25,841 nt of DNA from a virus, in the IMG/VR virus record IMGVR_UViG_3300031601_002030, positions 1-25,841 of that record. One strand, written 5' to 3'. Under the pieces are notes generated by a model. The model ran no database searches, was not told where the DNA came from, and was given only the letters and a program-made list of their open reading frames with translations. Positions 1,381 through 21,765 of the stretch are shown here, piece after piece. The first letter of the stretch is position 1. Each line of letters starts with the position of its first letter. A program made the position numbers and the translations under genes.

Positions 1381-3000
1381 ATGTCAAATCAAAAAGAACG
1401 AGAAAGAGCGGAATTACACAAAACAATATGGCAAATCGCTAATGATTTAAGAGGGTCAATTGATGGATGGGATTTTAAACAATATGTATTAGGAATGCTA
1501 TTTTATAAATTTATATCTGAAAATCTAGTTACATACATTAATAAAAATCAACACGCTTCAGGTGAAAAGAACTTCAACTATGAAGACTTTTCTGATGAGA
1601 GGGCTGAAAATGCTAGACAACAAGTCGTGGATGAAAAGGGTTTCTTTATTCTACCTAGTGAATTATTCTCCAACGTATCTAACAAAGCAAAAAATGATGA
1701 TGATTTGAATGTAACATTAGAAAACGTGTTTAAAAATATAGAAAAATCAGCAAGAGGAACAGAATCAGAAGGCAATTTAAAGGGCTTATTTGATGATATT
1801 GATGTGAACTCAAACAAACTTGGCGGGACAGTAATTGAAAGAAATGAAAAACTTAGAAAACTTCTATTTGCTATTAGAGAACTTAAACTTGGTAAGTATG
1901 AGGATAATAGTATTGATGCATTTGGTGATGCTTATGAATATCTAATGACAATGTATGCAGCGAATGCAGGTAAATCTGGGGGAGAGTTCTTTACGCCACA
2001 AGAAGTAAGTGAACTACTTACACGACTAGCATTGATTGATTTTGGTAATGCAACAACTGATGAAAAAGGCAATATAAGTATTCCAGATAAGAAACGAGTA
2101 GAGAAAGTATATGATCCGGCTTGTGGCTCGGGTTCTTTGTTGTTAAAGTTTGCTAAAATTTTAGGAAAAGAAAATGTGAAATTAGGCTTCTTTGGACAAG
2201 AAATCAATTTGACCACTTACAACTTAGCAAGAATAAATATGTTTTTACATGATATTAACTTCGAAAAATTTAACATCGGCTATGGAGATACGCTTAAAAA
2301 CCCTATACACTGGGACGATAAACCATTTGATGCTATTGTTTCTAATCCGCCATATTCAATAAAATGGGATGGAAAAGACAATCCATTATTTATAAACGAT
2401 GAAAGATTTGCACCTGCAGCGGTGTTAGCTCCCAAATCAAAAGCGGATTATGCTTTTATTATGCATATTTTAAGTTGGTTATCATCTAATGGAACTGCAT
2501 CAATAGTTGAGTTCCCAGGTATTTTATATCGTGGAGGCGCTGAACAGAAGATTCGCAAGTACTTGGTTGACAATAATTTTGTCGATTCTATTATTCAACT
2601 ACCATCAGATTTATTCTTTGGGAACACTATTTCTACAGCAATTATGATTTTACGTAAAAACAAATCTGAAAATAAAATTCATTTTATAGATGCAAGTGAG
2701 GAATTTGAGCGTAAGGGCATTAAGAATAAACTCTCAGATAATAACATTTTAAGAATACTTGAATCTGTTCGCTACAAAAATGAAAAAGAGTATTTTTCAA
2801 GATATGTTCAATTGTCAGAAATTATTGAAAGAGACTACAACCTATCGGTCAATACTTATCTAAAAAAGGAAGACAAGAACGAAGTTATTAATATTATAGA
2901 GTTAAATCAAGAGATTAAGGAGATTGTGTGTAGGGTTGACCTTCTTAGAAAATCGATAGAAGCGATTGTCACTGATTTAGAAGGTGATGAGGTTGAGTAA
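1381..3000 (+). CDS. hsdM: Type I restriction-modification DNA methyltransferase (M subunit)
   Basis: HsdM, 539 aa, the usual family length. It is an N6-adenine methyltransferase that pairs with HsdS to modify the host target (M2S1) and with HsdR to form the restriction complex. The N-terminal helical HsdM domain spans roughly residues 8-150. The catalytic part shows 'GGEFFTPQEV' near residue 200, the SAM-binding motif DPACGSG at 245-251, and the catalytic motif IV NPPY at 322-325, so it appears active. The 'SGGEFFTPQEVSELL' style is that of type IC (EcoR124-like) enzymes. The gene is the first of the operon, and hsdS overlaps its last bases. Its SAM demand may connect with the phage-borne metK further right. 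Confidence 0.96.
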   Translation: MSNQKERERAELHKTIWQIANDLRGSIDGWDFKQYVLGMLFYKFISENLVTYINKNQHASGEKNFNYEDFSDERAENARQQVVDEKGFFILPSELFSNVSNKAKNDDDLNVTLENVFKNIEKSARGTESEGNLKGLFDDIDVNSNKLGGTVIERNEKLRKLLFAIRELKLGKYEDNSIDAFGDAYEYLMTMYAANAGKSGGEFFTPQEVSELLTRLALIDFGNATTDEKGNISIPDKKRVEKVYDPACGSGSLLLKFAKILGKENVKLGFFGQEINLTTYNLARINMFLHDINFEKFNIGYGDTLKNPIHWDDKPFDAIVSNPPYSIKWDGKDNPLFINDERFAPAAVLAPKSKADYAFIMHILSWLSSNGTASIVEFPGILYRGGAEQKIRKYLVDNNFVDSIIQLPSDLFFGNTISTAIMILRKNKSENKIHFIDASEEFERKGIKNKLSDNNILRILESVRYKNEKEYFSRYVQLSEIIERDYNLSVNTYLKKEDKNEVINIIELNQEIKEIVCRVDLLRKSIEAIVTDLEGDEVE

Positions 3001-4219
3001 AATTTACGATGTGATCCATGAATTATCTCCAAAAGGAGTAAAGTTCAGACCTCTTTGGGAATTAACTGTGTGGGATAAGAAATTCAACGCTGTAGATAAT
3101 GAGAAGCAAAGTAAAGTTGTTAAATATACATATGTATTAGCAAAAAAACTTAAAGAGTTAGTAGTTATAAATGGAAAAGTGAGATTATTATCTACAGGAG
3201 ATTATGTAGCATTTACCTCTGAGAAAAAAGCAGGAAATTTGATCAGTGAAGGAGAAATTATTGCGATTCCTTGGGGAGGTAAAGCTAACGTAAAGTATTA
3301 CAAAGGTAAATTTGTAACCGCAGATAACAGGATAGCAACTTCAAAAGATGTGGCAATATTAAATAACAAGTTTTTGTATTATGTATTTTTAGATAGAATA
3401 GATGAAATTCAATCATTTTACAGAGGAGCAGGAATTCAACATCCTAGCATGAAAAGAGTGCTTGATTTGTTGATCCCAGTGCCTCCACTGGAAGTCCAAA
3501 ATGAGATAGTTCGAATTTTGGACAATTTTACGGAGCTAGAAGCGGAGCTAGAAGCGGAGCTAGAAGCGGAGCTAGAAGCAAGAACTAAGCAGTATGATTA
3601 TTATAGAAATAAACTTCTATTTGAATTAGATAATCTATATCCAAAAAACGAGATTAGTTCAGTTTGCAATAAAACATCAAATATTAAGTGGAATGAACAT
3701 AAAAATACAGATAAGATATATATAGATCTCTCATCAGTAGATAGAGTAACACACGCAATTGAAAATACTGAAACTATAAATTCGGATAATGCACCAAGTA
3801 GGGCAAAAAGAATTGTTAAGGAGGACGACGTATTGTTCGCTACTACAAGGCCAACGTTAAAGAGATTTTGTCTAATTCCTAAATGTTTTGATTCTCAAAT
3901 ATGCAGTACAGGTTATTGTGTTCTAAGAACCAAAGTGGATGTTATGATTCCAAAATTCATGTATTACCAACTATCAAATGCTAGATTTTTTGACTATGTG
4001 GAATCAAAACAAAAAGGATCTGCATATCCGGCAATCAGTGATTCTGATATTAGAAAATACAAAATATCTTTACCACCAATTGACGTCCAACAAGTGGCTG
4101 TTGATAAGCTAGATACTTTTAGTAATTGTGTTATGTCGCTTACTGCTGGGCTCCCGGCTGAAATAAATGCTAGAAGAAAACAATACGAGTATTATAGAAA
4201 TAAACTACTTACATTTTAA
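2987..4219 (+). CDS. hsdS: Type I restriction-modification specificity subunit
   Basis: HsdS, about 410 aa, with two target-recognition domains (roughly residues 1-180 and 215-395), each followed by a conserved helical region. The two copies of that region end in near-identical 'KQYDYYRNKLL' and 'KQYEYYRNKLL' (about residues 205 and 400), the internal duplication expected of HsdS. The central spacer holds T-(ELEA)4, encoded by four perfect 12-bp repeats. In EcoR124 the analogous TAEL repeats set the distance between the two half-sites. Start choice is open: GTG 2984, ATG 2987 and TTG 2993 are all in frame, overlapping the end of hsdM, and TTG 2993 has the best-placed AAGGTGA site. No second or silent hsdS copy and no inverted repeats are visible, so inversion-type switching is not supported. 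Confidence 0.95.
   Translation: MRLSKIYDVIHELSPKGVKFRPLWELTVWDKKFNAVDNEKQSKVVKYTYVLAKKLKELVVINGKVRLLSTGDYVAFTSEKKAGNLISEGEIIAIPWGGKANVKYYKGKFVTADNRIATSKDVAILNNKFLYYVFLDRIDEIQSFYRGAGIQHPSMKRVLDLLIPVPPLEVQNEIVRILDNFTELEAELEAELEAELEARTKQYDYYRNKLLFELDNLYPKNEISSVCNKTSNIKWNEHKNTDKIYIDLSSVDRVTHAIENTETINSDNAPSRAKRIVKEDDVLFATTRPTLKRFCLIPKCFDSQICSTGYCVLRTKVDVMIPKFMYYQLSNARFFDYVESKQKGSAYPAISDSDIRKYKISLPPIDVQQVAVDKLDTFSNCVMSLTAGLPAEINARRKQYEYYRNKLLTF
3532..3579 (+). repeat. Four perfect 12-bp tandem repeats in the hsdS spacer
   Basis: The unit GGAGCTAGAAGC occurs four times without mismatch at 3532-3543, 3544-3555, 3556-3567 and 3568-3579, encoding E-L-E-A four times between the two recognition domains. 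Copy-number change keeps the reading frame and would shift the spacing of the two half-sites, as is known for EcoR124I/R124II (two versus three TAEL units). Confidence 0.95.
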
Positions 4220-4233
4220 GGAGGTGTGTTGTG

Positions 4234-7200
4234 ATGGAAGAGTATAAAATAATAGTTCAACAAAACGAATCTACAGTTGTTGAGGAATACAAATCAAATC
4301 AAGAAAGACAAAAAGAGTATCAAAGCGAACCAGAACTAGAAAATGAGTTAATCAAACAACTAAAAAGCCAAGGGTATTCATTTGTTAATATACACAATAA
4401 TACAGACTTGATTTTGAATTTACGTAAGCAGCTTGAGCGTCTAAACAATTACACATTTTCTGAAAATGAATGGAATACTATATTTACTAAATACATTGAT
4501 AACACTAACGAGGAAATAGTAGAAAAAACTCGTAAAATACAAGAAGACTACATTTACAACCTTGTAAAGGAAGATGGATCAACTATAAATATTAGACTTC
4601 TTGATAAGAAACAAATTCATAATAACAAACTTCAAGTCATACACCAATATGAGGTTGAGGGGAAAAGAAAAAATAGATATGATGTAACTATCTTAGTTAA
4701 TGGATTACCACTTGTACATGTAGAATTAAAAAGACGAGGGGTGTCAATTAAAGAAGCGTTCAATCAAATTAGAAGATATGAAAATGAAAGTTTCTGGGCA
4801 GATAATGGGTTATACCAATATGCACAGATTTTTGTCATTTCTAATGGAACCGAAACCAAATATTATTCAAATACAACACGCGAGCTAGCTAATAAGGAAA
4901 ATCAAGGGTTTAACAGCACAAAGAAGAAAACAAGTCATTCATTTGAATTTACTAGCTACTGGGCGGATGCTGAGAGTAAGAACATACCTGATTTATGTGA
5001 TTTTACCGCGACATTTTTATCTAAACATACTATTCTAAATGTATTGACAAAGTATTGTATCTTTACAGTTGATAATCTATTATTAGTTATGAGACCATAT
5101 CAAATCGCTGCTACTGAAAAACTTGTAAATCATATTAAAATTGCTCATAATGCAAAAACATACGGCTCAATAGATGCTGGTGGTTACGTTTGGCATACTA
5201 CAGGTTCAGGTAAGACTTTAACATCTTTTAAGACAGCTCGCGTATCATCTGATTTAAATTATATTAAAAAAGTTCTATTTGTTGTGGATAGAAAAGATTT
5301 AGACTATCAAACAATGAAAGAATATGATAAATTTGAAAAAGGTGCGGCTAATTCTAATACAAGTACAGCGGTACTAAAAAAGCAACTTGAAGATCCAAAT
5401 GCCAAAATAATTATAACAACAATTCAAAAATTGGCTATTTTTGTTAATAGAAACCTTAAACATGATATCTACCAGGATGAAGTAGTTATGATTTTTGATG
5501 AATGTCATCGTTCTCAATTTGGTGATATGCACAGAGACATTGTCAAATCATTTAAAAAATACTATATCTTTGGTTTTACAGGAACACCAATATTCGCTAT
5601 AAATTCATCAACTAGTAATAAATTTCCAACATTAAAAACAACTAAGCAAGTATTCGGTTTGAAGTTGCATACATACACAATTGTAAATGCAATCCACGAT
5701 GGTAATGTTTTACCATTTAGAATCGACTATTTAAATACAGCTAAAGCATCAGACGATATGAACGATGATGAAGAAGTCTATGATATCAAACGAGAAGAAG
5801 CTTTGTTGGATGAAAGACGTATTTCAGAGAATGTTAGATATACTTTGAAACATTTCTCTCAAAAAACAAAAAGAAATGAAAGAGCTTTTAGCTTCAGTAA
5901 GTTATTAAATGTTGAAGAAGTAGCAAAAAGCAAATATCAATCAAGGTTAACGAAAAACATAGAGAATCGTCAATCAATTAAAACCACTGGATTTAATTCT
6001 ATTTTTGCTGTTGCAAGTATCAAAGCAGCAAAGAAATATTATAGTGAGTTTAAAAAACAACAAGAATCCTTAGTTCCAGTAAAAAGGTTAAAGATTGCTA
6101 CTATATTTAGTTGGAGTCCGAATGAGTCATTAGATGGGATTTTTGATGAGAACAATGAGAGCACTGAAAAGCTAGATAAGAGTTCTAGAGATTTCTTAGA
6201 TGATGCAATAAAAGATTATAATTCACACTTTGGAACTAGTTATGATACATCAAGCGATAAATTCCAAAATTACTACAAAGATTTAAGTTTAAGAGTTAAG
6301 AATAAAGGTGTTGACTTATTAATAGTTGTAAATATGTTCTTAACTGGATTTGATGCAACAACTCTAAATACTATATGGATTGATAAGAAATTAAGAATGC
6401 ATGGACTTGTTCAAGCTTTCTCAAGAACAAACAGAATATTGAATTCAATTAAAACATTTGGTAATGTAATTTGTTTTAGAAATCTAGAACCTCAAGTTAA
6501 TAAAGCAATTAGCACCTTTGGAGACAAAGATGCTAGTGGAATTGTATTACTAAAATCTTTCACAGAATACTATGAAGGTTATGAAGGATTCAGTGGTTAT
6601 AAGAACTTGGTTACTGAACTTCTCAGTGAATACCCAATAGGTCATGAGAAAATGGGAGAGAAAGCAGAAAAAGCATTTATAACATTGTTTAATCAGATAT
6701 TGAGAACAAAGAATATTCTTGTCAGTTTTGATGATTTCGAAGGAATGCAAATTCTAAGTGATTTTGATTATCAAGACTACCAAAGCATTTACTTAAGTCT
6801 TTATGATAAATACAGAAGAAATAGAGATGCAGAAGCAGAACAAATCAATGAGGAAATCGAGTTTGAAATTGAACTCGTTAAATCAGTTGAAGTTAACATT
6901 GATTACATATTAATGCTTGTTGATAAGTTCCATAGTGATCATATGGAAGATAAAGAGATAGAAATACGAAAAGCAATTGATTCTTCTCCATCACTAAGAA
7001 ATAAAAAAGATTTAATTCTGAATTTTATAGCTTCATTAACTGTTAATGACACTGTTACGGATGAATGGAGAAAATATATAGAAAACAAAAAGAAAGAAGA
7101 ATTAGACAAGATTATTTCTGAAGAGAGTCTTGAACCTAAAGAAACTAAAATCTTTGTTACTGAAGCTTTTATAAATGGTGAAATAAGGCAAACTGGTACA

Positions 7201-7326
7201 GCAATTGTCAAAGTTTTACCACCAACATCGATGTTTGGTGATACGGCTGGGATGAGCAGAAGTGATAAGAAAAAAACTGTATTTCAAAAATTAATCAAAT
7301 TCTTCAATAGATTTTGGGGATTATAG
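4234..7326 (+). CDS. hsdR: Type I restriction endonuclease, R subunit
   Basis: HsdR, about 1030 aa, close to EcoR124 HsdR length. It provides ATP-driven DNA translocation and cleavage of unmodified DNA. The N-terminal nuclease has the PD-(D/E)xK pattern D151...E165-x-K167 (numbered from GTG 4231, in 'YDVTILVNG' and 'HVELKRRG'). The superfamily 2 motor follows: Walker A GSGKT at 325-329, DECH box at 423-426, then 'GFTGTPIF' (motif III) and a motif VI-like 'QAFSRTNRI'. The C-terminal ~250 residues are the helical HsdM-contact region. ATG 4234 is preferred over GTG 4231 because AAGGAGGTG (4218-4226) is then seven bases away. All key residues are intact, so restriction activity is likely. Confidence 0.96.
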   Translation: MEEYKIIVQQNESTVVEEYKSNQERQKEYQSEPELENELIKQLKSQGYSFVNIHNNTDLILNLRKQLERLNNYTFSENEWNTIFTKYIDNTNEEIVEKTRKIQEDYIYNLVKEDGSTINIRLLDKKQIHNNKLQVIHQYEVEGKRKNRYDVTILVNGLPLVHVELKRRGVSIKEAFNQIRRYENESFWADNGLYQYAQIFVISNGTETKYYSNTTRELANKENQGFNSTKKKTSHSFEFTSYWADAESKNIPDLCDFTATFLSKHTILNVLTKYCIFTVDNLLLVMRPYQIAATEKLVNHIKIAHNAKTYGSIDAGGYVWHTTGSGKTLTSFKTARVSSDLNYIKKVLFVVDRKDLDYQTMKEYDKFEKGAANSNTSTAVLKKQLEDPNAKIIITTIQKLAIFVNRNLKHDIYQDEVVMIFDECHRSQFGDMHRDIVKSFKKYYIFGFTGTPIFAINSSTSNKFPTLKTTKQVFGLKLHTYTIVNAIHDGNVLPFRIDYLNTAKASDDMNDDEEVYDIKREEALLDERRISENVRYTLKHFSQKTKRNERAFSFSKLLNVEEVAKSKYQSRLTKNIENRQSIKTTGFNSIFAVASIKAAKKYYSEFKKQQESLVPVKRLKIATIFSWSPNESLDGIFDENNESTEKLDKSSRDFLDDAIKDYNSHFGTSYDTSSDKFQNYYKDLSLRVKNKGVDLLIVVNMFLTGFDATTLNTIWIDKKLRMHGLVQAFSRTNRILNSIKTFGNVICFRNLEPQVNKAISTFGDKDASGIVLLKSFTEYYEGYEGFSGYKNLVTELLSEYPIGHEKMGEKAEKAFITLFNQILRTKNILVSFDDFEGMQILSDFDYQDYQSIYLSLYDKYRRNRDAEAEQINEEIEFEIELVKSVEVNIDYILMLVDKFHSDHMEDKEIEIRKAIDSSPSLRNKKDLILNFIASLTVNDTVTDEWRKYIENKKKEELDKIISEESLEPKETKIFVTEAFINGEIRQTGTAIVKVLPPTSMFGDTAGMSRSDKKKTVFQKLIKFFNRFWGL

Positions 7327-7360
7327 TTTTAACGCGCTTATATAATAGGGGGTATTTGTA

Positions 7361-8221
7361 ATGATTTTAGCCAAAACAATAGAGATATATTTACCTACTG
7401 GTGATGCCAGCAAAGTTAGTCAAGCAAGGATTACAACCGAAGCAATTAGAATAGTTTATGTAGCTAGATCTGAAATCGCAAATAGGAAAGTCGATTTAGA
7501 TAATATTGGTTGCTATATCTTGGTAGGTCTTGATTCAGCGGGAGATAAGATGGTCTATATAGGAGAGTCTGAAAATATCTATACTCGACTACAAGACCAC
7601 AAAAACAAGAAAGATTTCTGGAATGGAGTATATACTATACAGAACTTAAGCGGAACTTTTGACAAAGCACATCTTACATTTTTAGAACAATCAATGATTC
7701 AAAAAGCACTTGAAGCAGATAGATTTAAAGTTGAAAATGCAAATGGAGGAAAATACACTTCGATTTCTGAATCAAAGATGAATGAATGTTTGGTTTTCTT
7801 TGAAACAATTAAAACATTAATAAAAGCACTAGGCTTCAATGTGTTCGTACCCGAGATTGAGAAAGAACAATTAGATGAACAAGTTAGATTCTACTTCCGA
7901 AGTAAAGACAAATTGTGGGATGCTCAGGGTGTTTTTGTAGATGAGAAGTTCATCGTTCTTAAAGGGTCAATAGCTAGAACTGAACCTACTAGACATAAAA
8001 GAGAGTCAAGTGAGTTAAAATTTAGAGACAAATTAATTGATGACGGAATTATTGAAGAGGTAGAAGGGGTACTGACATTTGTTAAAGATTATTCATTCAA
8101 CTCTCCTAGTCTTGCGGCTGATATTGTTTCTTTGGGTAGTAATAGTGGATGGGTAGTTTGGAAAACTAAAGATGGGAGAACTCTTGGAGATGTATTTAGG
8201 GATGTAAAGATATGTGTTTAA
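7361..8221 (+). CDS. GIY-YIG domain protein with C-terminal DUF4357
   Basis: A 286-aa protein. The GIY-YIG nuclease domain covers about residues 48-115, with G50-C-Y52, Y66-I-G68, a conserved R76 and the metal-binding glutamate E109 in 'FLEQSM', so the catalytic set looks complete. The C-terminus (about 185-280, with 'FYFRSKDKLWDAQGVF' and 'VLKGSIARTE') is DUF4357. Such fusions are repeatedly found beside type I R-M genes, with no proven job; a nuclease acting on restricted or invading DNA is an inference. It follows hsdR by 34 bp with an AGGGGG site eight bases before ATG and is probably part of the same transcript. The next gene overlaps its stop by 10 bp. Confidence 0.85.
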   Translation: MILAKTIEIYLPTGDASKVSQARITTEAIRIVYVARSEIANRKVDLDNIGCYILVGLDSAGDKMVYIGESENIYTRLQDHKNKKDFWNGVYTIQNLSGTFDKAHLTFLEQSMIQKALEADRFKVENANGGKYTSISESKMNECLVFFETIKTLIKALGFNVFVPEIEKEQLDEQVRFYFRSKDKLWDAQGVFVDEKFIVLKGSIARTEPTRHKRESSELKFRDKLIDDGIIEEVEGVLTFVKDYSFNSPSLAADIVSLGSNSGWVVWKTKDGRTLGDVFRDVKICV

Positions 8222-9405
8222 GTGAATTGTTAGAATCTACCAAAAACTTAATAATTGAGTATGGCGGTAAGGTTCATGTAACTCATAATGTATATGGGGG
8301 TTATATATTTTCGAGTTTAGACAATCCAGAAATAGTTAAAGAGTTTCAGGTGAAATTAGAATCATTTGGTTTCTACAATGGTTATAAAGATAAAGCTGTT
8401 ATTATTTTTAATGTGAAACGTAATCTAAACCAAAATAATATTTCATATGATATTTTATTTGGATATCTAGTTGAAGGCATAGATATTATTATGAAGCGAA
8501 TAAAATCATTTCTGGAGAAAGGCAATGTAACGTACCATCATATTTACACAATAAAGGGAGTGAAATTTAACAAGAACTTTAGGGTTTTGGATACAGTATC
8601 TGCTGTGAACAACAATGATATTCCTAAAGAACTACGTGAATACTGGGATTCAAAGTTTAACTTTCATTCTAGGTATTATAGTACTTCAGAATGGTCAGAA
8701 ATAAGGTCAGGATTAATCTATACAGCTAAAATTAAAGTTGTAGATATTGAATATGATGTTGAAGAGCACATTGATGATGAATTGAAAGAAGTTTCAAAGA
8801 TAATGAGAATGTTTGAATTGATTTTTCCATTATTAACTAGTGTTCCCATACATTTGATAAAGAATTACTCTATTATTGATAGAGATAGTATTTTACGCAC
8901 AAATGATGGATCATCAAAGGCTCTTCCAAGCATTGCTATAAATAGCATGCGTAAAACAGATGTAAACACTAGTGAACTTGGTGATTATATATCAAAATTA
9001 GGAAGTTTAGCAAAGAAGGACTATTTAGTTTTAACATCAACGTTAAGAAGATTCAACAATGCTTTAATAGTTAGATCTGTTAATGACTCATACATTGACT
9101 TAAGGATTATTCTTGAGTCACTTCTTAGCTCTACGAAACATGATACTCCAATTCGACATACAGTTTCCCTAAGAGGTGGGTGGTTACTTGGGAAAACGGT
9201 GGAAGAAAGAGTAGATTATTCAAAAAGAATAAAAAAATTATATGATTATGGTTCAAAAGCTGTTCATGGCTCTAGTAATAATGTGACATCAAGTGAAATT
9301 CTACATAATAGTTTGAATTTAGTATGCGAATTAATCAAAACCATAATTAAAAATGGCAAAGTTTTTGATGAAGAGACTTGGACTAGGCTAACATTTGGAA
9401 GTTAA
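8212..9405 (+). CDS. Apea-like HEPN protein with degenerate Rx4H motif
   Basis: A 397-aa protein; the N-terminal ~270 residues are not recognised. The C-terminal part resembles the Apea-like HEPN family: an 'LRIILESLLSS' helix near 295, then 'LYDYGSKAVHGSS' near 343-355. HEPN ribonucleases use R-x4-H; here H352 is present but the arginine position (347) is glycine, so RNA cleavage is probably lost and the domain may act as a sensor, scaffold or antitoxin-like partner. It overlaps the GIY-YIG gene by 10 bp, implying translational coupling and a shared function with the R-M operon. There is no terminator-like hairpin directly after the stop. Confidence 0.75.
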   Translation: MCLSELLESTKNLIIEYGGKVHVTHNVYGGYIFSSLDNPEIVKEFQVKLESFGFYNGYKDKAVIIFNVKRNLNQNNISYDILFGYLVEGIDIIMKRIKSFLEKGNVTYHHIYTIKGVKFNKNFRVLDTVSAVNNNDIPKELREYWDSKFNFHSRYYSTSEWSEIRSGLIYTAKIKVVDIEYDVEEHIDDELKEVSKIMRMFELIFPLLTSVPIHLIKNYSIIDRDSILRTNDGSSKALPSIAINSMRKTDVNTSELGDYISKLGSLAKKDYLVLTSTLRRFNNALIVRSVNDSYIDLRIILESLLSSTKHDTPIRHTVSLRGGWLLGKTVEERVDYSKRIKKLYDYGSKAVHGSSNNVTSSEILHNSLNLVCELIKTIIKNGKVFDEETWTRLTFGS

Positions 9406-9409
9406 ATTT

Positions 9410-9450
9410 TTTATACCGGGTATAATCACTGTGAAAGCTATTATCAGGTA
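9410..9450 (+). repeat. Copy A of a ~42-nt related element ending in a TATAAT box
   Basis: This stretch, just after the HEPN gene stop, contains CGGGTATAAT (9417-9426), then TGTGA and ATTAT at fixed distances. A similar arrangement recurs at 13060-13101. By eye about 30 of 42 positions agree. The TATAAT has no good -35 and no TGn, so it may or may not be a promoter. Confidence 0.35.
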
Positions 9451-9516
9451 TGATTATATACTTTCTTTGAATAAAGAGCACTATTTAATGCAACTCTCAT
9501 CAATTGTTTCTTTATT

Positions 9517-9544
9517 TTGTCTGAAAATAGTGTATATTTATAAT
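9517..9544 (+). promoter_or_regulatory. Candidate promoter for the second HEPN cargo block
   Basis: TTGTCT (9517-9522), a 16-bp spacer and TATAAT (9539-9544) lie 100 bp before the ATG at 9645. A small TAGATT-T5-AATCTA hairpin sits in the leader (about 9571-9587). The gap 9406-9644 shows no gene. Confidence 0.45.
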
Positions 9545-9644
9545 TAAGATAAGAGTCGAAGGATGTTGGAATAGATTTTTTTAATCTAATGGAGTTTATT
9601 GGTTGAGAAGTTCTTGCATAAAGTTTTTCTAAGGAGGACAAATG

Positions 9645-10631
9645 ATGTTTAGAAAAGGATATATGATACTTAGATTATCAACACCAATTATTCTAGATAA
9701 GATATATGGGATTGAGGATAATATACTATTAAGACCATTTAAAACAAATGAGTTTTATGATTTCATGCATTCGTATCAAAAAACATATATTGTACCTGAT
9801 ATGCAAAATCGTGTAAATGAATTGTTCAGACGTAATTTTATTATGTCTGAAGATTTCACTACCTATTATGGGAATGGTAGTTATAAGGCAAATGCTGATA
9901 ATAGTAGATTGTGTTGCGTAGAATTTAAGGATGAGGTCTATGATAACAAAGGGATAGTTTCTAAGTGTTGGAACTATATGGATTCAATGGCACTATTGCC
10001 AGAACCGGTTTTAGTTTATGATCAGATGGATTATTACACTGATGGAAATACAGCATCAGCAAGTGATATGTACAGAAGATTTGATATAACAAAACCTGTT
10101 ATAGTTACAGAAGATATCATTGAGAAGATTCATTCTAATTACACAAGATTTGTTGAAATGTATGTTCAGCAAGATTTAAACTACTTTAAAATAAAGAGTT
10201 CGATTAGATTCTATCTATCTGGTTTAAGTAATTCATATCGTACATGGAACTATCAGTCTATGATGATGTATTTTATAATATTAGAGATGTTCTTAATTGA
10301 AGGAGATGAAGGGGTTACGTCCCAGTTCATAAACAACCTTTTTGCAATCAAAGATAAACTAGATAATGTGATGAGTTTTACTGATTTGCATAACATTGCC
10401 TTTAGTAAATCTAGTCTTAGATATCTTTATGAGATTAGAAGTAAAATCGCACATGGTAGAACTAATGAAATTGCATTTGGCGTAGGGAAGTTTTCTAGAT
10501 TTAAGGATGAAAAAACTGTTAGTGAGTTATTAAGGTTGATTGCCTTAGACATTATGTTGTTAAATCTTCATAGTCAAGAGGAGCAAGAAACTAATCAGGA
10601 GATGATTAATCATGATTGTGAAACTATTTAG
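9645..10631 (+). CDS. Apea-like HEPN protein with intact Rx4H
   Basis: A 328-aa protein. The N-terminal ~190 residues are unrecognised. The C-terminal ~120 residues match the Apea-like HEPN pattern, with 'SLRYLYEIRSKIAHGR' holding the full R-x4-H (R265 and H270 from ATG 9645). HEPN proteins of this type are predicted ribonucleases, common in abortive-infection and toxin modules; ribonuclease activity here is inferred. ATG 9645 is preferred over ATG 9642 because AAGGAGG (9631-9637) is then seven bases upstream. It overlaps the following small membrane gene by 20 bp, so the two are probably translated together. The C-terminal ends of this and the preceding HEPN protein (8212-9405) share the 'LY(E/D)..SK..HG' core, but the rest of the two proteins is not obviously alike. 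Confidence 0.8.
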   Translation: MFRKGYMILRLSTPIILDKIYGIEDNILLRPFKTNEFYDFMHSYQKTYIVPDMQNRVNELFRRNFIMSEDFTTYYGNGSYKANADNSRLCCVEFKDEVYDNKGIVSKCWNYMDSMALLPEPVLVYDQMDYYTDGNTASASDMYRRFDITKPVIVTEDIIEKIHSNYTRFVEMYVQQDLNYFKIKSSIRFYLSGLSNSYRTWNYQSMMMYFIILEMFLIEGDEGVTSQFINNLFAIKDKLDNVMSFTDLHNIAFSKSSLRYLYEIRSKIAHGRTNEIAFGVGKFSRFKDEKTVSELLRLIALDIMLLNLHSQEEQETNQEMINHDCETI

Positions 10632-11048: not shown

Positions 11049-11127
11049 AATTAAATACTATGACAAATGTGCTGTTGATTAAAATGGGAGCTCCAGTTAT
11101 AATATTAATAAATTGAGGAGGATAAGA

Positions 11128-12546
11128 ATGAAAAAAATTGTGTGTTTTGTGTTACTAAGTGCTACATTTATATTTGGTATGCTTTTCAGCAATAGTGTTT
11201 ATGCGTACATACCAGATGATGAGATTTTTGATGAGTTAGGTGATTACACGATTACAGAACCAACCATGGAAACAATAAAAGTATATATTAATTCAGATAT
11301 GGTTGATATTGTTGAGGAAACAGGTGCTACAGTACATACGTCTGAAATTAGACATTACTTTCTTGGGATATATATTTACTCAACTTATAAGTATTATCAT
11401 TATGTTGATAAATATATAGAGAATATAGTTACTCAACGATCAATTTATAATGATATTGATTCATTGATTTTTATATTAAATGAATTGGATAACTTTGCTC
11501 ATGAATATCCTAGCTGCCAAGGTAATGAATTGAATTGCGTCTTGGGGTTTGTTCGATCCACAAGTAACTCATACGCAAATACTTCAACTTTATATGGTGG
11601 GAAATGGGGGTTGTTAGCTGGTGATGTAAATGAAGATTTTGTCAGGTATGTAGATGATAATGATGGAGCTGGATTAGAAATAAGCGAATATTTCTCTGCA
11701 TTTATACCGACACATCAAGACGATACCGATTATGATAAAGTAAACTTCAATTCAAGTTTACATGGAAATGCATACTCAGGTTGGGAGTTTTATGATGGTC
11801 AAGATTATTATAATGGTTTGAAACAATATTTTCTTGTTGATCCATTTAATTATTCTAGTAATATAGATTTAGTTCACATGTTCGCATCTCTGGATGGGAT
11901 ATATAACAATACAGATAATTCTTTATCCTTCGGAAATAAACACAACAGAGATATCGTTTCCTGGGGTGGAGACTTGCAACAAATGGCTGATGAAATGAGA
12001 AATATAAATGTAAGCTTATTACCTACGTACATAGACATTGGTGGTGGATATTCAAATGTATCAGTTGATTTTTGTTCTTTTGTTGGCTATGGGGGATGTC
12101 TTGCTCCAGAAGAAGATATCTTAGCTGATATTGATGCAATGAATATAGCTGTGACATATTTAGATAACGATATTAATGACAGAGTATCAGTTGCATTTTC
12201 ATCTTATTATAATATAATTAACTATGATGATTCATACTTTCCTAATAGATATAAGATGTTCTTGGATTCGGTAATTGATACGATTGAATTAGATAATCCT
12301 GGAACTACTGATATTGAAAAGTTTAAACACGAAGTATATATTACTCTTGATGTAATTCTTGATGGAAATACATATAAAAACTATTATTTGATTCTAGGGG
12401 AAACATATGTTGGATATGGATTATTGCGAGGTAGTGAATGGCCTACAGGAGGATCGCTGCCAAATGTAGAATTAAGGGGCTATTTAGCGGACTTGTTTAT
12501 CGAGTATATTCTTGACATGGCATCTAGGCCATATTATTATGGTTAG
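11128..12546 (+). CDS. Secreted protein of unknown function
   Basis: A 472-aa protein. ATG 11128 is the start; an in-frame TTG at 11113 would put the GAGGAGG ribosome site (11115-11121) inside the gene. The N-terminus is a textbook signal peptide: M-K-K, a hydrophobic core to about residue 20, and V-Y-A at 24-26 as the likely cleavage site. The mature part is acidic and rich in Asp, Tyr and Asn, with two cysteine pairs (near residues 131/138 and 328/334) that could form disulfides. No lipobox, sortase motif or C-terminal membrane helix is visible, so it is probably released or held by a partner. I do not recognise a family. The membrane-protein gene follows after 27 bp. It could alter the cell surface of the lysogen. 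Confidence 0.8.
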   Translation: MKKIVCFVLLSATFIFGMLFSNSVYAYIPDDEIFDELGDYTITEPTMETIKVYINSDMVDIVEETGATVHTSEIRHYFLGIYIYSTYKYYHYVDKYIENIVTQRSIYNDIDSLIFILNELDNFAHEYPSCQGNELNCVLGFVRSTSNSYANTSTLYGGKWGLLAGDVNEDFVRYVDDNDGAGLEISEYFSAFIPTHQDDTDYDKVNFNSSLHGNAYSGWEFYDGQDYYNGLKQYFLVDPFNYSSNIDLVHMFASLDGIYNNTDNSLSFGNKHNRDIVSWGGDLQQMADEMRNINVSLLPTYIDIGGGYSNVSVDFCSFVGYGGCLAPEEDILADIDAMNIAVTYLDNDINDRVSVAFSSYYNIINYDDSYFPNRYKMFLDSVIDTIELDNPGTTDIEKFKHEVYITLDVILDGNTYKNYYLILGETYVGYGLLRGSEWPTGGSLPNVELRGYLADLFIEYILDMASRPYYYG

Positions 12547-12573
12547 AACGCTAAAAAGCAGGAGGAAACGCAA

Positions 12574-13068
12574 ATGAAGAAAATTGTAGTATTATTATCA
12601 CTAGCAATAACTTTGCTTGTGATTAGTTTAGGAAATCTTTATACAAACCTTAGTGCATTAACAATTCTAATAAATACAATTATAATTTCTTTGTGTATTG
12701 GGTATGATAAATCTAAATGGTTAATGCAATGTGCTTTATTACTGTCATCTGTGTTTTTTGAGATACTTCTATTTTTTGGGATTAATCAAATTAATTTACC
12801 GGTAGAAGAACAAAGTATAATACTAGGGATTCTAATGATGATTTTTATCCTATCACAATTAGGGTTGACAATTGTTGGAATAATTATGATTCATATTGGT
12901 CCGAAATCAAAAATAAATCATTATGACTATATTGTTTTGATAATTTCAATAATACTGGCAGGACTATATTTTACTCTCAAAAGTAATGTATTTATATACT
13001 TTGCTCTTACGATACTAATGATATATTCAATACCTTATTTTAGAAAAGTAATTTTTAATCGGGTATAA
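12574..13068 (+). CDS. Multi-pass membrane protein (164 aa)
   Basis: Five or six hydrophobic segments (about residues 4-22, 26-43, 50-69, 83-108, 120-136, 140-157) fill most of the protein, with short polar loops. There is no recognised family. AGGAGG (12560-12565) lies eight bases before ATG, and the gap from the secreted-protein gene is 27 bp, so the two are probably one operon. It might anchor or export the secreted protein, or act as an immunity protein; neither is shown by the sequence. Its stop codon lies inside the copy-B TATAAT element. Confidence 0.75.
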   Translation: MKKIVVLLSLAITLLVISLGNLYTNLSALTILINTIIISLCIGYDKSKWLMQCALLLSSVFFEILLFFGINQINLPVEEQSIILGILMMIFILSQLGLTIVGIIMIHIGPKSKINHYDYIVLIISIILAGLYFTLKSNVFIYFALTILMIYSIPYFRKVIFNRV

Positions 13069-13101: not shown

Positions 13102-13253
13102 AAATGTAATCAAATGAAACAATATATAACGTTAAACTCATTTTGATGTTAAAATCAAGGAGATAGTGCTTCGCGCTCATGGACAAAATTTGCATTTTTT
13201 GTTAGACTATAAATATCGTGGAGTACTGGCTAAAAATGAGCTTAGAAGTAACA

Positions 13254-13283
13254 GGAATTCAGAAATGAGTTCCTTTTTCTTTT
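13254..13283 (+). terminator. Probable intrinsic terminator
   Basis: Stem GGAATTC (13254-13260) with GAGTTCC (13267-13273), one G-U wobble and a six-base loop, followed by TTTTTCTTTT. It separates the cargo block from the phage gene at 13363. The rest of the gap 13069-13362 shows no convincing gene. Confidence 0.6.
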
Positions 13284-17597: not shown

Positions 17598-18704
17598 TCA
17601 TAAATTGTCATTCATGTAATTTTCAAAAAATTCCTTAAAACTTAAGAGGTCCTCGCTAATCGGAGAGGAAACTGAATCTTTTATACTTCTATCTTTTTTA
17701 AAGTTTAAACCAATGTTGAGTAAAGAGATTCTTTGTTGAATATCGAAATCATCATTATTCCTGTAAAACATATACCTGTCATTACATGAAAATGTAATTG
17801 CTTTTCTGTGTATTTCAGAGAAAGTGAAAGAGATTCCTGTAGCAGGGATATTGTTATTATATTGTAATATTACATCTATAACTTCATTAAATACAAATAA
17901 ATGAATAGGATTTTTCGCATAAACTATTTTTTTACTACTGACTAATTGCAATAGATTCATTTTATAAATATCTTCCTTGTCTTTTAATTCAAGGAAATCA
18001 AGATTTTTGGATTTTGGATATATTTTTTCGTCAATACACAGTAATGAAATGCGAGGAGATAGTGGTGTTAGGACTATTAAACCGGACATGACAGGGGCAT
18101 TGTGATTAGGTTGAAAAGGATTGATTAGAACAATCGGATTATCACTGGAAATAAAGTCAATATTTGTTTTATTAATACAAATGAGCATTTTAAGATCTAA
18201 TGTAATACTTTCTATATCTTTCGCTATTTTTAAACATAATCCTGCTTCTTGTCTAGTGTCAATGTTGTTTGCAAACTGATTAGTCATGTACCGCAGTTCT
18301 TCTTTAGTAAGTTCTTCTTCTAGAAATTGAGAAGTAATTGCAGTCATTTTAGAAAACATTTCTGTTTTCATTCTTGTTGTATTATCTCTACTGTCAGTAG
18401 TCCGTAACCTTTGAAATGATATAAATGAATTCATTAGTATTTTTTGCTCTTTAGATAAAATTTCGTATGGGTTAGCGAGGATTTCATTTATAAGAGGAGC
18501 CCACTTTGTTTCTAATTTTTGGAGTTTCATTTCCCATTCTTCATCCTCACCATACATATAATCTTCATAACACTGAGACGTGTATGGGATGTCTTTTATG
18601 AGTTCTCTACTTTTTATATTAATAATAGAAAATTTTTTCTTGCTATTAGCAAATGATTTCAAATAAAACTGTGGGACGTAATGTTGATGTTTTCTTTTGC
18701 TCAT
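17598..18704 (-). CDS. DUF4238 protein
   Basis: A 368-aa protein on the opposite strand to all its neighbours. The N-terminus 'KHQHYVPQFYLKSFA' (residues 5-19) is the hallmark of DUF4238, and the middle has 'FISSDNPIV' (near 195-205), also typical of the family. The biochemical function is unknown; members often occur on mobile elements and prophages. A ribosome site AAGGAG (complement of 18715-18720) lies ten bases before the ATG. It has its own minus-strand promoter, and its 3' end is 15 bp from the IS right end. Antisense orientation within a late phage operon marks it as a moron, probably expressed in the lysogen. A defence or exclusion role is inferred. Confidence 0.85.
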   Translation of the reverse strand: MSKRKHQHYVPQFYLKSFANSKKKFSIINIKSRELIKDIPYTSQCYEDYMYGEDEEWEMKLQKLETKWAPLINEILANPYEILSKEQKILMNSFISFQRLRTTDSRDNTTRMKTEMFSKMTAITSQFLEEELTKEELRYMTNQFANNIDTRQEAGLCLKIAKDIESITLDLKMLICINKTNIDFISSDNPIVLINPFQPNHNAPVMSGLIVLTPLSPRISLLCIDEKIYPKSKNLDFLELKDKEDIYKMNLLQLVSSKKIVYAKNPIHLFVFNEVIDVILQYNNNIPATGISFTFSEIHRKAITFSCNDRYMFYRNNDDFDIQQRISLLNIGLNFKKDRSIKDSVSSPISEDLLSFKEFFENYMNDNL

Positions 18705-18766: not shown

Positions 18767-18784
18767 ACAATGTGGGAGGTATTA

Positions 18785-19915
18785 ATGAAAATAATTACAA
18801 GTGAATCAGTATTTAATGGACATCCTGATAAGGTATGTGACCAAATCAGTGATGCAATACTAGATGCAATTTTAGAACAAGATAAAAATGCAAGAGTAGC
18901 AGTTGAGTGCGCTATCAAAGATGACTTAGTATTTGTTTTTGGAGAAGTCACAACAACTGCTATTGTTAATTATAAACAAATAGCTAGACAGGTATTAAAA
19001 GATATAGGTTATTTAGATACTTTTAATGTGGTTACAAAGATAAGTGAACAATCATCTGATATTGCGCTTGGAGTTGATTCTAATGAATTAAAAGAACAAG
19101 GCGCAGGAGATCAAGGGATTATGTTTGGTTACGCTTGTAATGAAACACAAGAGTTTATGCCATTACCTATTATGCTCGCAAACCAAATATCTAAAGAAAT
19201 GGATAAAATCAGAAAAGAAAAGTACTCACATATTTTTGGCCCAGATGGAAAATGCCAAGTATCTGTAGGGTATGAGAATGGTAGACCAAAGAAGATTGAA
19301 ACTATTGTTGTATCCGCTCAGACGAAACCAGGAATAGATGATTTAATTATAGAAAGTATAATATTAAATGAAGTTCTAACAAAAGTGTTTGATATATATA
19401 CTATCTTTGATGCTAAGGTATTAATCAATCCAACCGGCGAATTTATAATAGGTGGACCGTATGCTGATTCAGGATTAACTGGTAGAAAGATAATTGTTGA
19501 TACGTATGGTGGCTATGCAAAACACGGTGGTGGTGCTTTCTCAGGAAAGGACGTAAGCAAAGTTGATCGTAGTGCGGCTTATTATGCAAGATACGTTGCA
19601 AAAGCCATTGTGGGGGCAGGTCTTGCCACACATTGCGAGGTTCACTTGAGCTATGCAATTGGTGTTGCAAAGCCAGTGAGCGTCTTAGTAAATACATTTG
19701 ATACAGGCGTTACAAGTGATGAAGAGATACAAGCTCTTGTTAATTATATGTTTGATTTCAAACCTGAAAGCATAAGAAAAGAACTTGATTTAGATACAGT
19801 CAAGTTCCAGGAGTTAGCAAAGTATGGACACTTTGGTAGAGAAGATTTAAATGTTCGATGGGAACATGTAGACGATAAGATTAAGCAATTGAGAGAGCTT
19901 TATGGCAAAACCTAA
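18785..19915 (+). CDS. metK: S-adenosylmethionine synthetase
   Basis: MetK, 376 aa, near the usual length. It makes SAM from methionine and ATP in the cytoplasm. Key motifs are intact: GHPDK at 12-16, signature GAGDQGIMFGYA from 106, and the phosphate-binding GGGAFSGKD at 248-256. ATG 18785 follows GGGAGG (18774-18779) by five bases; the upstream ATG 18770 has no site. Chromosomal metK is a housekeeping gene, so a complete copy inside a packaging module is a phage auxiliary gene. The following HNH gene overlaps it by 14 bp. It probably raises SAM for the ParB-methylase two genes away and perhaps for HsdM and HsdR, or offsets SAM depletion; this link is inferred. Confidence 0.95.
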   Translation: MKIITSESVFNGHPDKVCDQISDAILDAILEQDKNARVAVECAIKDDLVFVFGEVTTTAIVNYKQIARQVLKDIGYLDTFNVVTKISEQSSDIALGVDSNELKEQGAGDQGIMFGYACNETQEFMPLPIMLANQISKEMDKIRKEKYSHIFGPDGKCQVSVGYENGRPKKIETIVVSAQTKPGIDDLIIESIILNEVLTKVFDIYTIFDAKVLINPTGEFIIGGPYADSGLTGRKIIVDTYGGYAKHGGGAFSGKDVSKVDRSAAYYARYVAKAIVGAGLATHCEVHLSYAIGVAKPVSVLVNTFDTGVTSDEEIQALVNYMFDFKPESIRKELDLDTVKFQELAKYGHFGREDLNVRWEHVDDKIKQLRELYGKT

Positions 19916-20242: not shown

Positions 20243-21022
20243 ATGATAAAATCTAACGTTATTAGTGTGGAGAAAAAAGACAATAAAATTGAACTACATA
20301 AAAATTCCTTTATAGATAAAATGGTACTTCTTTTTAATATAGGTGGCGTAGTTATACCACCATTAGCTCTTGTGGGTGTTGGATTGAGTTTGATTAATAA
20401 AAAATACGCAGAAGAAAATCTAAATATTCTAATAGAGCATATACAAAATCAAGAAATTAAGATTTCCGAATTTCAGAAATTGAACAAAGATAATATAAGA
20501 AACTTTTCCTTCAATGTACAAAAAATTATTGAGGAAGTTACACAAGGACGAGCTAAAGAGAAAATCAATATTTACGGAAATGCTTTATTATATGGTATTG
20601 ACAATGGTAGCATATTTGCAGATGACGATAACTTTAGTGAGAAAATAGATCTAATTGCTAATTTAAATATAAATGATTTAAGAATTTTAATTAAAATGGA
20701 CAAAGAAAAGCAGGTTTTTGGAGACGATACGATTGTTCACACTGAGTTTAGAGCTGATTTAGTTCAAACCACTCATTTCATGAATGGTAAAAAAGAAAAT
20801 TATCTTGGCTTTGATGATTTTGATATACATAGAATGTATAAACTTGTATCTCTAGGTTTAGTAAAAGAAGAATATAAGTCAGAAATTGACTCATTTCGTT
20901 CAACAGGTAGTAAAACTATTATAAAAACAGAAATCGAATTTAAATTAACAGAATATTTTGACTCATTAAAAAAATATATAGAAAATAGTAAGGAAAAGTT
21001 TGAAAATGCCCCCCCTACCTAA
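20243..21022 (+). CDS. Membrane-anchored cargo protein with possible winged-helix C-terminus
   Basis: A 259-aa protein. One strong hydrophobic segment, possibly a hairpin because of the central Pro-Pro, spans about residues 27-51; a helical, coiled-coil-prone stretch (54-100) follows. The C-terminal half has 'INDLRILIKMDKE', 'IHRMYKLVSLGLVKEEY' and 'EIEFKLTEYFDSLKKYI', an arrangement that recalls a winged helix-turn-helix, as in some Abi-alpha-like (DUF4393) proteins; this is a fold-level guess. No known family is recognised. It has its own promoter and lies between HNH and terS, 89 bp before a HEPN-like gene. Possibly a membrane sensor or regulator for that protein. Confidence 0.7.
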   Translation: MIKSNVISVEKKDNKIELHKNSFIDKMVLLFNIGGVVIPPLALVGVGLSLINKKYAEENLNILIEHIQNQEIKISEFQKLNKDNIRNFSFNVQKIIEEVTQGRAKEKINIYGNALLYGIDNGSIFADDDNFSEKIDLIANLNINDLRILIKMDKEKQVFGDDTIVHTEFRADLVQTTHFMNGKKENYLGFDDFDIHRMYKLVSLGLVKEEYKSEIDSFRSTGSKTIIKTEIEFKLTEYFDSLKKYIENSKEKFENAPPT

Positions 21023-21111
21023 GAAAAACAATATATTTAAGGGTACCGTATAGGTGGGCAACCAAAATACGCAAAGTAGAATTTTTGAATATCAGAAAAG
21101 AGGTTCTAATT

Positions 21112-21765
21112 ATGATTAACCAGTATGTTAACAATATATTCTCTAAAAATAGAGAATCATTAATCGATACATACAAGCTTAATACCAAGAAGGACATAGA
21201 ACATTTTAAACGTAAAATAATGAGTTTAGACATGAATTTTTCCGTTTTTTTTGAACAACATTATGAAATAATGGATCTTTGTAACAAAAAGAATTATGAT
21301 ACCATTGCAATGACAGTTGCATATAAGTTGATTGATAATTTTGGTTGGATGTATAATGAAAAAAAGAAAATAGGCAGTGCATATACATTTAAGCATTTTG
21401 TTTCTTCTTTTCTTATTAGAAATCTAAGTGATGATGTTACAGTTGATGAATTATGGTCATCACGTTGTGGCATGTATCATCAAAATACTTATGAGTCAAA
21501 TCATACAGCCAAAGATGATAGTGATATAAGATTTGTTGTTTTTTACTCTAATATAAAAATTTCTAAAAAAGATTTATTAAAAATAGTAAATACTATAGAT
21601 TATAAAGCTGAAGATTACTGCTTTTTACGTATGGATGAACTTTTTAAAACAATTAAAATATCTATTAATGAGTTTTTTGAATATGTTATTGTTAGTGGAA
21701 GATTATATGAAATAATTAACAAAATGGCTATGATGCCTTTATGGTATGCTTATATTGATGTCTAG
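21112..21765 (+). CDS. HEPN-like cargo protein with Rx4H motif
   Basis: A 217-aa, mostly helical protein. 'DELWSSRCGMYHQNT' (about 112-126) has R118-x4-H123, placed after a long helix as in HEPN ribonucleases such as those of abortive-infection and toxin modules. The family is not recognised more closely, and the assignment rests mainly on this motif. ATG 21112 is used because AGAGG lies about ten bases upstream; an in-frame TTG at 21085 has no site. It follows the membrane protein gene by 89 bp and ends nine bases before terS. Candidate effector of a two-gene system. Confidence 0.65.
   Translation: MINQYVNNIFSKNRESLIDTYKLNTKKDIEHFKRKIMSLDMNFSVFFEQHYEIMDLCNKKNYDTIAMTVAYKLIDNFGWMYNEKKKIGSAYTFKHFVSSFLIRNLSDDVTVDELWSSRCGMYHQNTYESNHTAKDDSDIRFVVFYSNIKISKKDLLKIVNTIDYKAEDYCFLRMDELFKTIKISINEFFEYVIVSGRLYEIINKMAMMPLWYAYIDV

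What the first reader, a model, noticed from the sequence alone, without database searches (positions are those of the whole stretch)
11128..13068. Unrecognised secreted protein with a membrane-protein partner in a prophage
A 472-aa protein with a clear signal peptide, four cysteines in two close pairs and no known domain is paired with a multi-pass membrane protein. Such a pair away from structural and lysis genes suggests lysogenic conversion: surface change, superinfection exclusion, or a toxin with its immunity protein.
Basis: partly seen in the sequence, partly recalled or inferred. Interest (0 to 1): 0.5.

Follow-up and report, generated by a model that had tools for sequence, protein, structure and literature searches.

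The report
Phage-borne TelC-family toxin and immunity pair
A phage of what are probably wall-less bacteria carries a secreted protein of the TelC toxin family, which in streptococci destroys a cell-wall building block, next to a membrane protein that probably protects its maker; this raises the question of what such a toxin attacks where there is no cell wall.

Summary
In detail: a 472-aa secreted protein (11128-12546) with two conserved cysteine pairs is followed 27 bases later by a 164-aa multi-pass membrane protein (12574-13068). No profile library names it, but a chain of profile searches identifies it: relatives in Tenericutes-type genomes led to the C-terminus of an RHS-repeat protein, then to PG-binding/Rv2525c proteins. 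A profile of all these finds one solved structure: 5ukh, the TelC toxin domain (E 3.9e-8). The TelC active-site pattern is kept. [quoted passage not shown] In 15 of 15 loci counted, the next gene encodes a membrane protein or lipoprotein by a hydropathy/lipobox rule; most are unrelated to one another, as immunity proteins are. Three related phages carry the pair, at two cargo sites. New here: a stand-alone, Sec-type TelC as phage cargo, and carriage in genomes without detectable MraY or transpeptidases (9 of 12 with a relative) that mostly keep undecaprenyl-pyrophosphate synthase. There lipid II is unlikely to be the self-target; undecaprenyl-pyrophosphate carriers are the likeliest. Activity, immunity, secretion and host are inferred.

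The parts
11116..11121 (+). ribosome-binding site AGGAGG of the toxin gene
   Evidence: read directly
11128..12546 (+). telC-like gene: 472-aa secreted protein of the prok-TelC (Lipocone) family
   Evidence: family
11128..11205 (+). signal peptide, residues 1-26 (cleavage after VYA is my reading)
   Evidence: hydropathy and sequence; no signal-peptide predictor was available
11452..12351 (+). TelC-like core, residues about 109-408
   Evidence: span aligned by hhalign A4 against A7
11515..11538 (+). first cysteine pair, C130 and C137
   Evidence: kept in L087 and L218
11866..11877 (+). D247 and H250: helix-2 motif xD..H of the Lipocone active site
   Evidence: 13 of 13 rows of A9; lined up with NADFTH of 5ukh through A7, in a segment not significant on its own
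11968..11973 (+). G281-D282: motif (S/G)WxGD, candidate helix-3 position
   Evidence: invariant in A6 and A9; lined up with GWEGD of 5ukh through A7, same weak segment
12073..12099 (+). second cysteine pair, C316 and C324
   Evidence: kept in L087 and L218
12115..12135 (+). D330, D334, D336: aspartate-rich motif, candidate helix 4; D336 is the +6 aspartate said to be unique to TelC families
   Evidence: invariant in A6; lined up with EDDYKADLDSVNI of 5ukh, the significant segment
12247..12249 (+). R374: candidate for the conserved arginine of the C-terminal extension (R450 is the alternative)
   Evidence: invariant in A6, lined up with R of VREKEF in 5ukh; R450 is invariant in the 13 rows of A9
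12560..12565 (+). ribosome-binding site AGGAGG of the partner gene
   Evidence: read directly
12574..13068 (+). candidate immunity protein, 164 aa, multi-pass membrane protein
   Evidence: relative next to the L087 toxin at 44%
13253..13274 (+). terminator-like hairpin downstream of the pair
   Evidence: consensus scan only: 2 sites found, 0.6 expected

Best explanation
The pair is a phage-carried toxin-immunity cassette. The lysogen or infected cell exports the 472-aa protein through Sec. Outside, its TelC-family (Lipocone) domain, with the H250/D282/D330-D334-D336 site and probably calcium, cleaves a phosphate-linked head group from a pyrophosphorylated polyprenyl lipid on the outer face of neighbouring cells lacking the partner. 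The 164-aa membrane protein protects the producer and its kin by blocking the toxin at the membrane. Shown here: gene pair, family membership by profiles, conserved active-site residues, conserved two-gene layout with varied membrane partners, cargo status. Inferred: secretion, catalysis, immunity, and the substrate. In rivals with a wall it would be lipid II and undecaprenyl pyrophosphate; among wall-less kin, undecaprenyl-pyrophosphate-linked glycans.
For: Profile A6 (11 sequences, this protein included) finds a single chain in the PDB at E up to 10, 5ukh_A (TelC toxin), E 3.9e-8. A7, four RHS/Rv2525c/anchored members without any Tenericutes-type sequence, ranks 5ukh first of 4 at E 8.9e-6. 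A4 (Tenericutes-type and two phage proteins) against A7: hhalign 99.5%, E 5.5e-23; the two phage proteins alone against A7: 97.6%, E 3.6e-12. Burroughs et al. 2025 (PMC12419801) name TelC as the domain fused to PGBD and Rv2525c barrels, and give the +6 aspartate as unique to TelC: D330 to D336 here. RHS fusion. Partner rule 15 of 15 against 59 of 162 background ORFs by the same rule. All-against-all BLAST of the 15 partners gave four pairs at E up to 0.1, only two convincing: window-L087 and L173-L193. Toxin (74%) and partner (44%) differ more between window and L087 than 6 of 8 other shared phage genes (81-90%). Two insertion sites. TelC kills from outside; TipC is membrane-anchored.
Against: The link to TelC is transitive: profiles of the Tenericutes-type sequences alone (A3, A4) did not find 5ukh at E up to 5 and 10, nor did the single protein at E up to 5. 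In the hits to 5ukh only the DxxxDxD-to-arginine segment is significant by itself (i-E 6.8e-6, 0.0013); the W-AG and H..GWxGD segments line up in order but with no significance. Both predicted structures failed (pLDDT 29.9 and 32.6), so the fold was not checked. No activity, secretion or immunity data. The D247 position is not kept in L204 and L205, and the G546 copy lacks D336 and R374. Behind the RHS gene the next gene is 186 bp away. The 15 loci are not all independent, and the lipobox rule was widened once to take in L199. The small terminase (51%) and HNH (64%) genes also differ strongly between window and L087.
Confidence: 0.77

Rival explanations
1. Superinfection exclusion: the secreted protein changes a surface lipid or glycan that other phages use as receptor, and the membrane protein tethers it or blocks entry; it helps the lysogen rather than killing neighbours.
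For: Carried by phages at cargo sites beside anti-phage genes; a polyprenyl-phosphate hydrolase could alter surface glycans. PMC12419801 suggests limiting of superinfection for intracellular Min-Wnt domains of phages.
Against: The same pair layout stands in loci of cellular genomes with no phage gene that I recognised by eye (L172-L174, L194); the domain is an RHS tip; the partner type changes from locus to locus, which fits immunity, not a shared exclusion mechanism.
Confidence: 0.12
2. Lysis or release module for a wall-less host: a lipid-attacking exported enzyme plus a holin-like membrane protein open the membrane at the end of infection.
For: Phages of wall-less cells need another exit than peptidoglycan cutting; the pair lies beside packaging or tail genes.
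Against: Besides the window only 1 of 18 sibling loci has it upstream of the small terminase gene (the rest of those genomes was not held in full); relatives occur in cellular loci and as an RHS tip; in 8 of the 12 cellular loci counted the partner is a lipoprotein by rule, not a holin.
Confidence: 0.06
3. A secreted housekeeping or scavenging enzyme of the host lineage picked up by phages, with a membrane-bound accessory subunit and no toxicity.
For: One match per genome in cellular genomes; two cellular copies sit next to a radical SAM protein, not a classic toxin feature.
Against: Patchy: 9 of 279, 2 of 160 and 2 of 90 genomes of three orders; partners mostly of unrelated sequence; TelC kinship; broken copy in G002.
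Confidence: 0.08

Closest known systems
TelC-TipC of Streptococcus intermedius (LXG toxin and immunity, T7SS)
   Same: Toxin domain by profile (5ukh); xD..H, GWxGD and DxxxDxD motifs and an arginine; TelC is toxic outside the cell; membrane-anchored immunity protein.
   Different: No LXG domain: a signal peptide instead of T7SS export; carried by phage; the partner is a multi-pass protein or, in relatives, a lipoprotein (TipC's sequence was not compared); found in genomes without detectable MraY.
prok-TelC domains fused to peptidoglycan-binding and Rv2525c-like domains (Burroughs et al. 2025; L204, L205 here)
   Same: Same domain at the C-terminus.
   Different: Those two proteins carry PF01471 and PF08924; the window protein has neither, and has an extra N-terminal region of about 80 residues and two cysteine pairs.
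Stand-alone CapCone-2 and Min-Wnt Lipocone toxins with two-gene immunity layout (Burroughs et al. 2025)
   Same: Signal peptide or lipobox plus Lipocone domain, two genes, TM or lipoprotein immunity.
   Different: Other Lipocone families. For prok-TelC the passages I read mention a stand-alone form in cyanobacteria without secretory signals, and fusions, but no secreted stand-alone two-gene form.
RHS polymorphic toxins
   Same: G1105 carries this domain as C-terminal tip after RHS repeats.
   Different: The window protein has no RHS repeats.

Membership tests
prok-TelC family, Lipocone superfamily | Sequence-profile kinship with the TelC toxin domain (PDB 5ukh) | tested here: met
   E 3.9e-8 with A6, E 8.9e-6 with A7, carried by the DxxxDxD segment; not met by Tenericutes-only profiles, so transitive through
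prok-TelC family, Lipocone superfamily | Active-site polar positions: H2 histidine with xD four positions upstream, H3 acid, H4 aspartate | tested here: met
   I246-D247..H250, D282, D330 in 13 of 13 rows of A9; pattern from PMC12419801 sections 7 and 12; assignment to helices is by alignment, not structure
prok-TelC family, Lipocone superfamily | TelC-only aspartate six positions after the H4 aspartate and arginine in a C-terminal helix | tested here: met
   D336 and R374 invariant in A6 and at least 90% of rows in A9; the G546 copy departs at both; which arginine (R374 or R450) is not settled
prok-TelC family, Lipocone superfamily | TelC fold with two helical lobes and calcium site | tested here: inconclusive
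   both models below pLDDT 33; no fold search run on them
prok-TelC family, Lipocone superfamily | Lipid II / undecaprenyl-pyrophosphate phosphatase activity | not testable with these tools
   known for TelC (PMC5555719 section 8)
LXG / T7SS toxin system | N-terminal LXG domain and T7SS export | tested here: not met
   no LXG or any Pfam hit at E up to 0.1; signal-peptide-like N-terminus
Polymorphic toxin-immunity system | Same toxin domain on different delivery modules | tested here: met
   stand-alone secreted, RHS tip, PGBD-Rv2525c tip, and one with a C-terminal hydrophobic anchor by reading
Polymorphic toxin-immunity system | Adjacent, diverse immunity gene acting in the toxin's compartment | tested here: inconclusive
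   adjacency and membrane or lipoprotein nature in 15 of 15 loci; protection itself not testable here
Phage lysis cassette | Present across sibling phages | tested here: not met
   1 of 18 loci at this site besides the window; other sites of those genomes not all held

The most novel reading that the evidence does not exclude
A branch of the TelC lipid II phosphatase toxins has been kept, with immunity genes, in bacteria that have lost peptidoglycan and in their phages, where it attacks a different polyprenyl-pyrophosphate or phospholipid head group; it would be a wall-precursor toxin re-aimed at wall-less rivals and spread by phages.
Probability: 0.45. Interest if true: 0.75.

Novelty: new variant of a known kind. 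Interest (0 to 1): 0.6.

Why it matters
TelC is known as a toxin against the cell-wall precursor lipid II. Relatives that keep the active-site motif and sit in a toxin-immunity layout, in genomes without detectable MraY and transpeptidases, make a clear question testable: what essential lipid does this enzyme family attack where no wall is made? It also suggests that phages of such bacteria carry antibacterial effectors, and gives a name to a family that the Pfam, PHROGs, NCBIfam and PADLOC copies used here do not recognise.

Tried and rejected
Single-sequence searches of phages and plasmids with the toxin, of phages with one cellular relative and of plasmids with another gave nothing; exact-peptide scans with the toxin, the partner and the G1105 domain gave no relative. 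The sibling-phage route through the large terminase gave L087. Profile scans of viral contigs with A1 and A5 returned only L087's contig, and A8 returned L087's and L218's contigs; a degenerate DNA pattern for the DxxADxDAxN motif had given L218 (2 of 21 loci encode the domain, L087's contig and L218). The G1105 domain met only two phage records, one at E 6e-8 (L206) and one at E 0.04. Weak PDB names met on the way (TCTP 0.12, BamD-like 0.1, FliE 0.0085, ThsA macro 0.23, APP 0.41, L-asparaginase 0.78) were judged chance, as were single-member Pfam hits. EntV (7roa) came at E 0.015 with A7; not followed. The two AlphaFold models were too poor for a fold search, so none was run. One search returned the same table of matches: redundant. 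Class-draw hits in G135, G275 and G329 (E 0.0016-0.0038) were fetched but not examined. Left out of the count of 15 loci: G724 (partner cut by the contig end, near-copy of G733), G520 (95-aa fragment at a contig end), G770 (fragments), and the proteins in L204-L207. In the partner count, start codons inside the longest ORF were used for L173 and L199 so that the lipoprotein signal is N-terminal; the first lipobox expression missed L199 and was widened. A promoter-like site at 11075-11103 exists, but such sites are no more frequent than in shuffles (22 against 21.7).

Full report
What is there. The window is a 25,841-base virus record. The 472-aa ORF starts with ATG at 11128 behind AGGAGG and ends at 12546; the 164-aa ORF starts at 12574 behind its own AGGAGG and ends at 13068. 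The first has a signal-peptide-like N-terminus and, beyond it, four cysteines in two pairs (C130/C137, C316/C324); the second has five hydrophobic peaks. Neither matches Pfam, PHROGs, NCBIfam or PADLOC at the cut-offs used. The small terminase gene follows after about 290 bp.

Relatives. The large terminase gave 80 sibling loci in viral contigs, the best 80 of 281. One, L087, carries both genes in the same order before the small terminase gene (74% and 44% identity). Profiles then found relatives in cellular genomes: 7 of 395 in a class draw (three of them weak), 2 of 160, 2 of 90 and 9 of 279 in three orders. G002, the centre of the draw, is the Tenericutes assembly of locus L003; I call this set 'Tenericutes-type' (that GTDB places it in Bacilli is recalled). 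A later DNA pattern gave a third phage copy, L218 (40-44% identity), again followed by a membrane protein (118 aa).

Identification. Profile A4 hit the C-terminus of a 1337-aa open frame in G1105 (E 6e-14; 2 of 341 genomes of the class of G770, a Romboutsia assembly, Clostridia by recall). Its upstream part is RHS repeats (PF05593) and a one-TM ORF follows. That C-terminus in turn matched 341 plasmid records at E up to 0.1 (Enterococcus 272, Lactiplantibacillus 49); the Lactobacillaceae and actinobacterial matches listed are at E 5e-4 to 3e-8, the Enterococcus ones seen are weak (E about 0.01 over a third of the query). The two such proteins scanned, L204 and L205, carry PF01471, PF08924 (Rv2525c-like) and then this domain. 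Burroughs et al. 2025 (PMC12419801; abstract, outline, passages and sections 7, 12 and 30 read) state that TelC domains are fused to PGBD and Rv2525c-like barrels. The direct test agrees: profile A6 finds only 5ukh, the TelC toxin domain, E 3.9e-8, and A7, which holds none of the Tenericutes-type sequences, ranks it first at E 8.9e-6. The significant part is the D..AD.D..N to arginine segment (i-E 6.8e-6 and 0.0013); the Y..W..AG and DF.H..GW.GD segments line up in order but are not significant alone. A4 against A7 gives 99.5%, E 5.5e-23. Profiles of the Tenericutes-type sequences alone did not reach 5ukh, so the identification runs through A7.

Active site. Invariant in the 11 rows of A6 (window numbering): R143, G165, H250, G281, D282, D330, D334, D336, R374. 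The paper's TelC mark, an aspartate six positions after the H4 aspartate plus a conserved arginine in a C-terminal extension, fits D330, D336 and R374 or R450. If the 14 extra residues of the 365-residue 5ukh chain are an N-terminal tag (my assumption; the toxin construct is residues 202-552), TelC D401, whose alanine variant serves as the inactive control, is the D of NADFTH and corresponds to D247 here. L204 and L205 lack that aspartate. The G546 copy lacks D336 and R374.

How it would work. TelC severs lipid II at the phosphoester to undecaprenyl, needs a pyrophosphate group, binds calcium, and was toxic when exported but not in the cytoplasm (PMC5555719, section 8 and passages). TipC neutralises it from the membrane (PMC6193138, passages). 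Reported immunity proteins of Lipocone toxins are all TM or lipoproteins. Here the next gene downstream encodes a membrane protein or lipoprotein in 15 of 15 loci (5 multi-pass, 8 lipoprotein, 2 with one N-terminal TM), against 59 of 162 background ORFs by the same rule; the loci are not all independent. Gaps are -20 to +34 bp in 14 of them and +186 bp behind the RHS gene. Of all pairs of the 15 partners only window-L087 and L173-L193 are convincingly alike. Between window and L087 the toxin (74%) and partner (44%) differ more than 6 of 8 other shared phage genes (81-90%); the small terminase (51%) and HNH (64%) are the remaining two.

Cargo. Of the 80 sibling loci, 18 hold at least 1.9 kb upstream of the small terminase gene; 1 of 18 (L087) has the pair, and the others have other cargo or replication-region genes there. 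In L218 the pair lies between the major-tail region (phrog_88, then an ORF of phrog_709, of unknown function, by position a tail chaperone, and an 81-aa ORF) and the tape-measure gene. In 21 sibling loci that hold both the phrog_709-like and tape-measure genes, the interval runs from about 225 to 2337 bp, so this looks like a second cargo site. Beside the pair the window has a type I restriction system (my reading of ORFs 1381-7326) and a PDC-S14 gene; L087's contig has AbiH and methylases, an integrase fragment and an anti-repressor.

The wall question. The host of the window is not known. Its IS transposase is up to 83% identical to those of Tenericutes and Izemoplasma assemblies, and G002, one of these, carries a broken copy of the toxin with a membrane protein after it; both are leads, not proof. 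In 21 genomes, MraY matched in 5 (4 over the cut-off) and the transpeptidase domain in the same 5; UppS matched in 19, 18 over the cut-off (E up to 1e-10). Of the 12 Tenericutes-type genomes with a relative (G002, G102, G279, G280, G359, G546, G551, G610, G615, G724, G733, G755), 9 lack both wall markers, and 8 of those 9 have an UppS match (G610 partial, G615 none). The three with wall markers (G102, G280, G359) show that the family is not confined to wall-less genomes. Completeness is not given and some assemblies are small. Published predictions of multiple peptidoglycan losses in related orders fit (PMC10868615, passages). So among such kin lipid II is unlikely to be the target; TelC's use of undecaprenyl pyrophosphate makes that carrier or its glycan conjugates the best candidate. 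The other reading is a weapon against walled neighbours, in which case the partner's role is less clear.

Novelty. Searches of the paper library (up to 20 top rows seen of each) listed no report of TelC-family toxins in phages of, or in, wall-less bacteria; the main text of PMC12419801 has no word beginning with mycoplasm, tenericut, mollicut or prophage, but its source-data tables were not read. Hence: new variant of a known kind.

Noticed in passing
L172:12478-13743 (+) and L174:7815-9146 (-): In two cellular loci (G359, G279) the toxin-lipoprotein pair is followed by a radical SAM protein whose best model is the PapB-type ranthipeptide maturase, far below the cut-off; the toxin or partner may be modified after translation.
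   Followed up: partly
L173:11179-17915 (-): In G102 the pair stands near ABC transporters whose ATPases score against lactococcin-972-type and streptosactin exporters, below cut-off.
   Followed up: partly
Enterococcus plasmids, hits H51-H82: 272 Enterococcus plasmid records match the G1105 domain weakly (E about 0.01 in the rows seen), many annotated 'glycoside hydrolase domain-containing protein' or DUF1906; perhaps an unannotated TelC-type C-terminus.
   Followed up: partly
L203:4501-4875 (-) and 7368-7784 (-): Romboutsia genome with two short stand-alone ORFs resembling the domain (the first by profile; the second by eye), amid small membrane-protein genes; may be orphan toxin tips.
   Followed up: no
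window 1381-8221: Type I restriction genes (HsdM, HsdS, HsdR by reading) followed by a GIY-YIG/DUF4357 gene matching PDC-S14 (E 1e-78).
   Followed up: partly
window 8212-10631: Two ORFs (397 and 329 aa) with RxxxxH-like motifs near their C-termini by eye (KAVHG, KIAHG), possibly HEPN-type; the first has a partial PHROG hit of unknown function, the second none.
   Followed up: no
window 17598-18704 (-): DUF4238 protein on the opposite strand next to the IS transposase; an ORF upstream of the small terminase gene in L085 looks similar by eye.
   Followed up: no
window 18770-19915: S-adenosylmethionine synthetase gene in the phage, found in 46 of the 160 loci held, not far from a ParB-methyltransferase fusion gene.
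   Followed up: partly
window 20243-21765: Two ORFs between HNH and the terminase genes, without Pfam hits, found only in the overlapping contig L081 among the loci searched: perhaps a further cargo site.
   Followed up: no
window 23786-24856: ORF matching PDC-S31 candidate defence models (E 5e-32), between large terminase and portal (portal by L081).
   Followed up: no
L087:18398-19051: ORF in the tail cargo site of L087 with no Pfam or PADLOC hit; by eye TIR-like.
   Followed up: no
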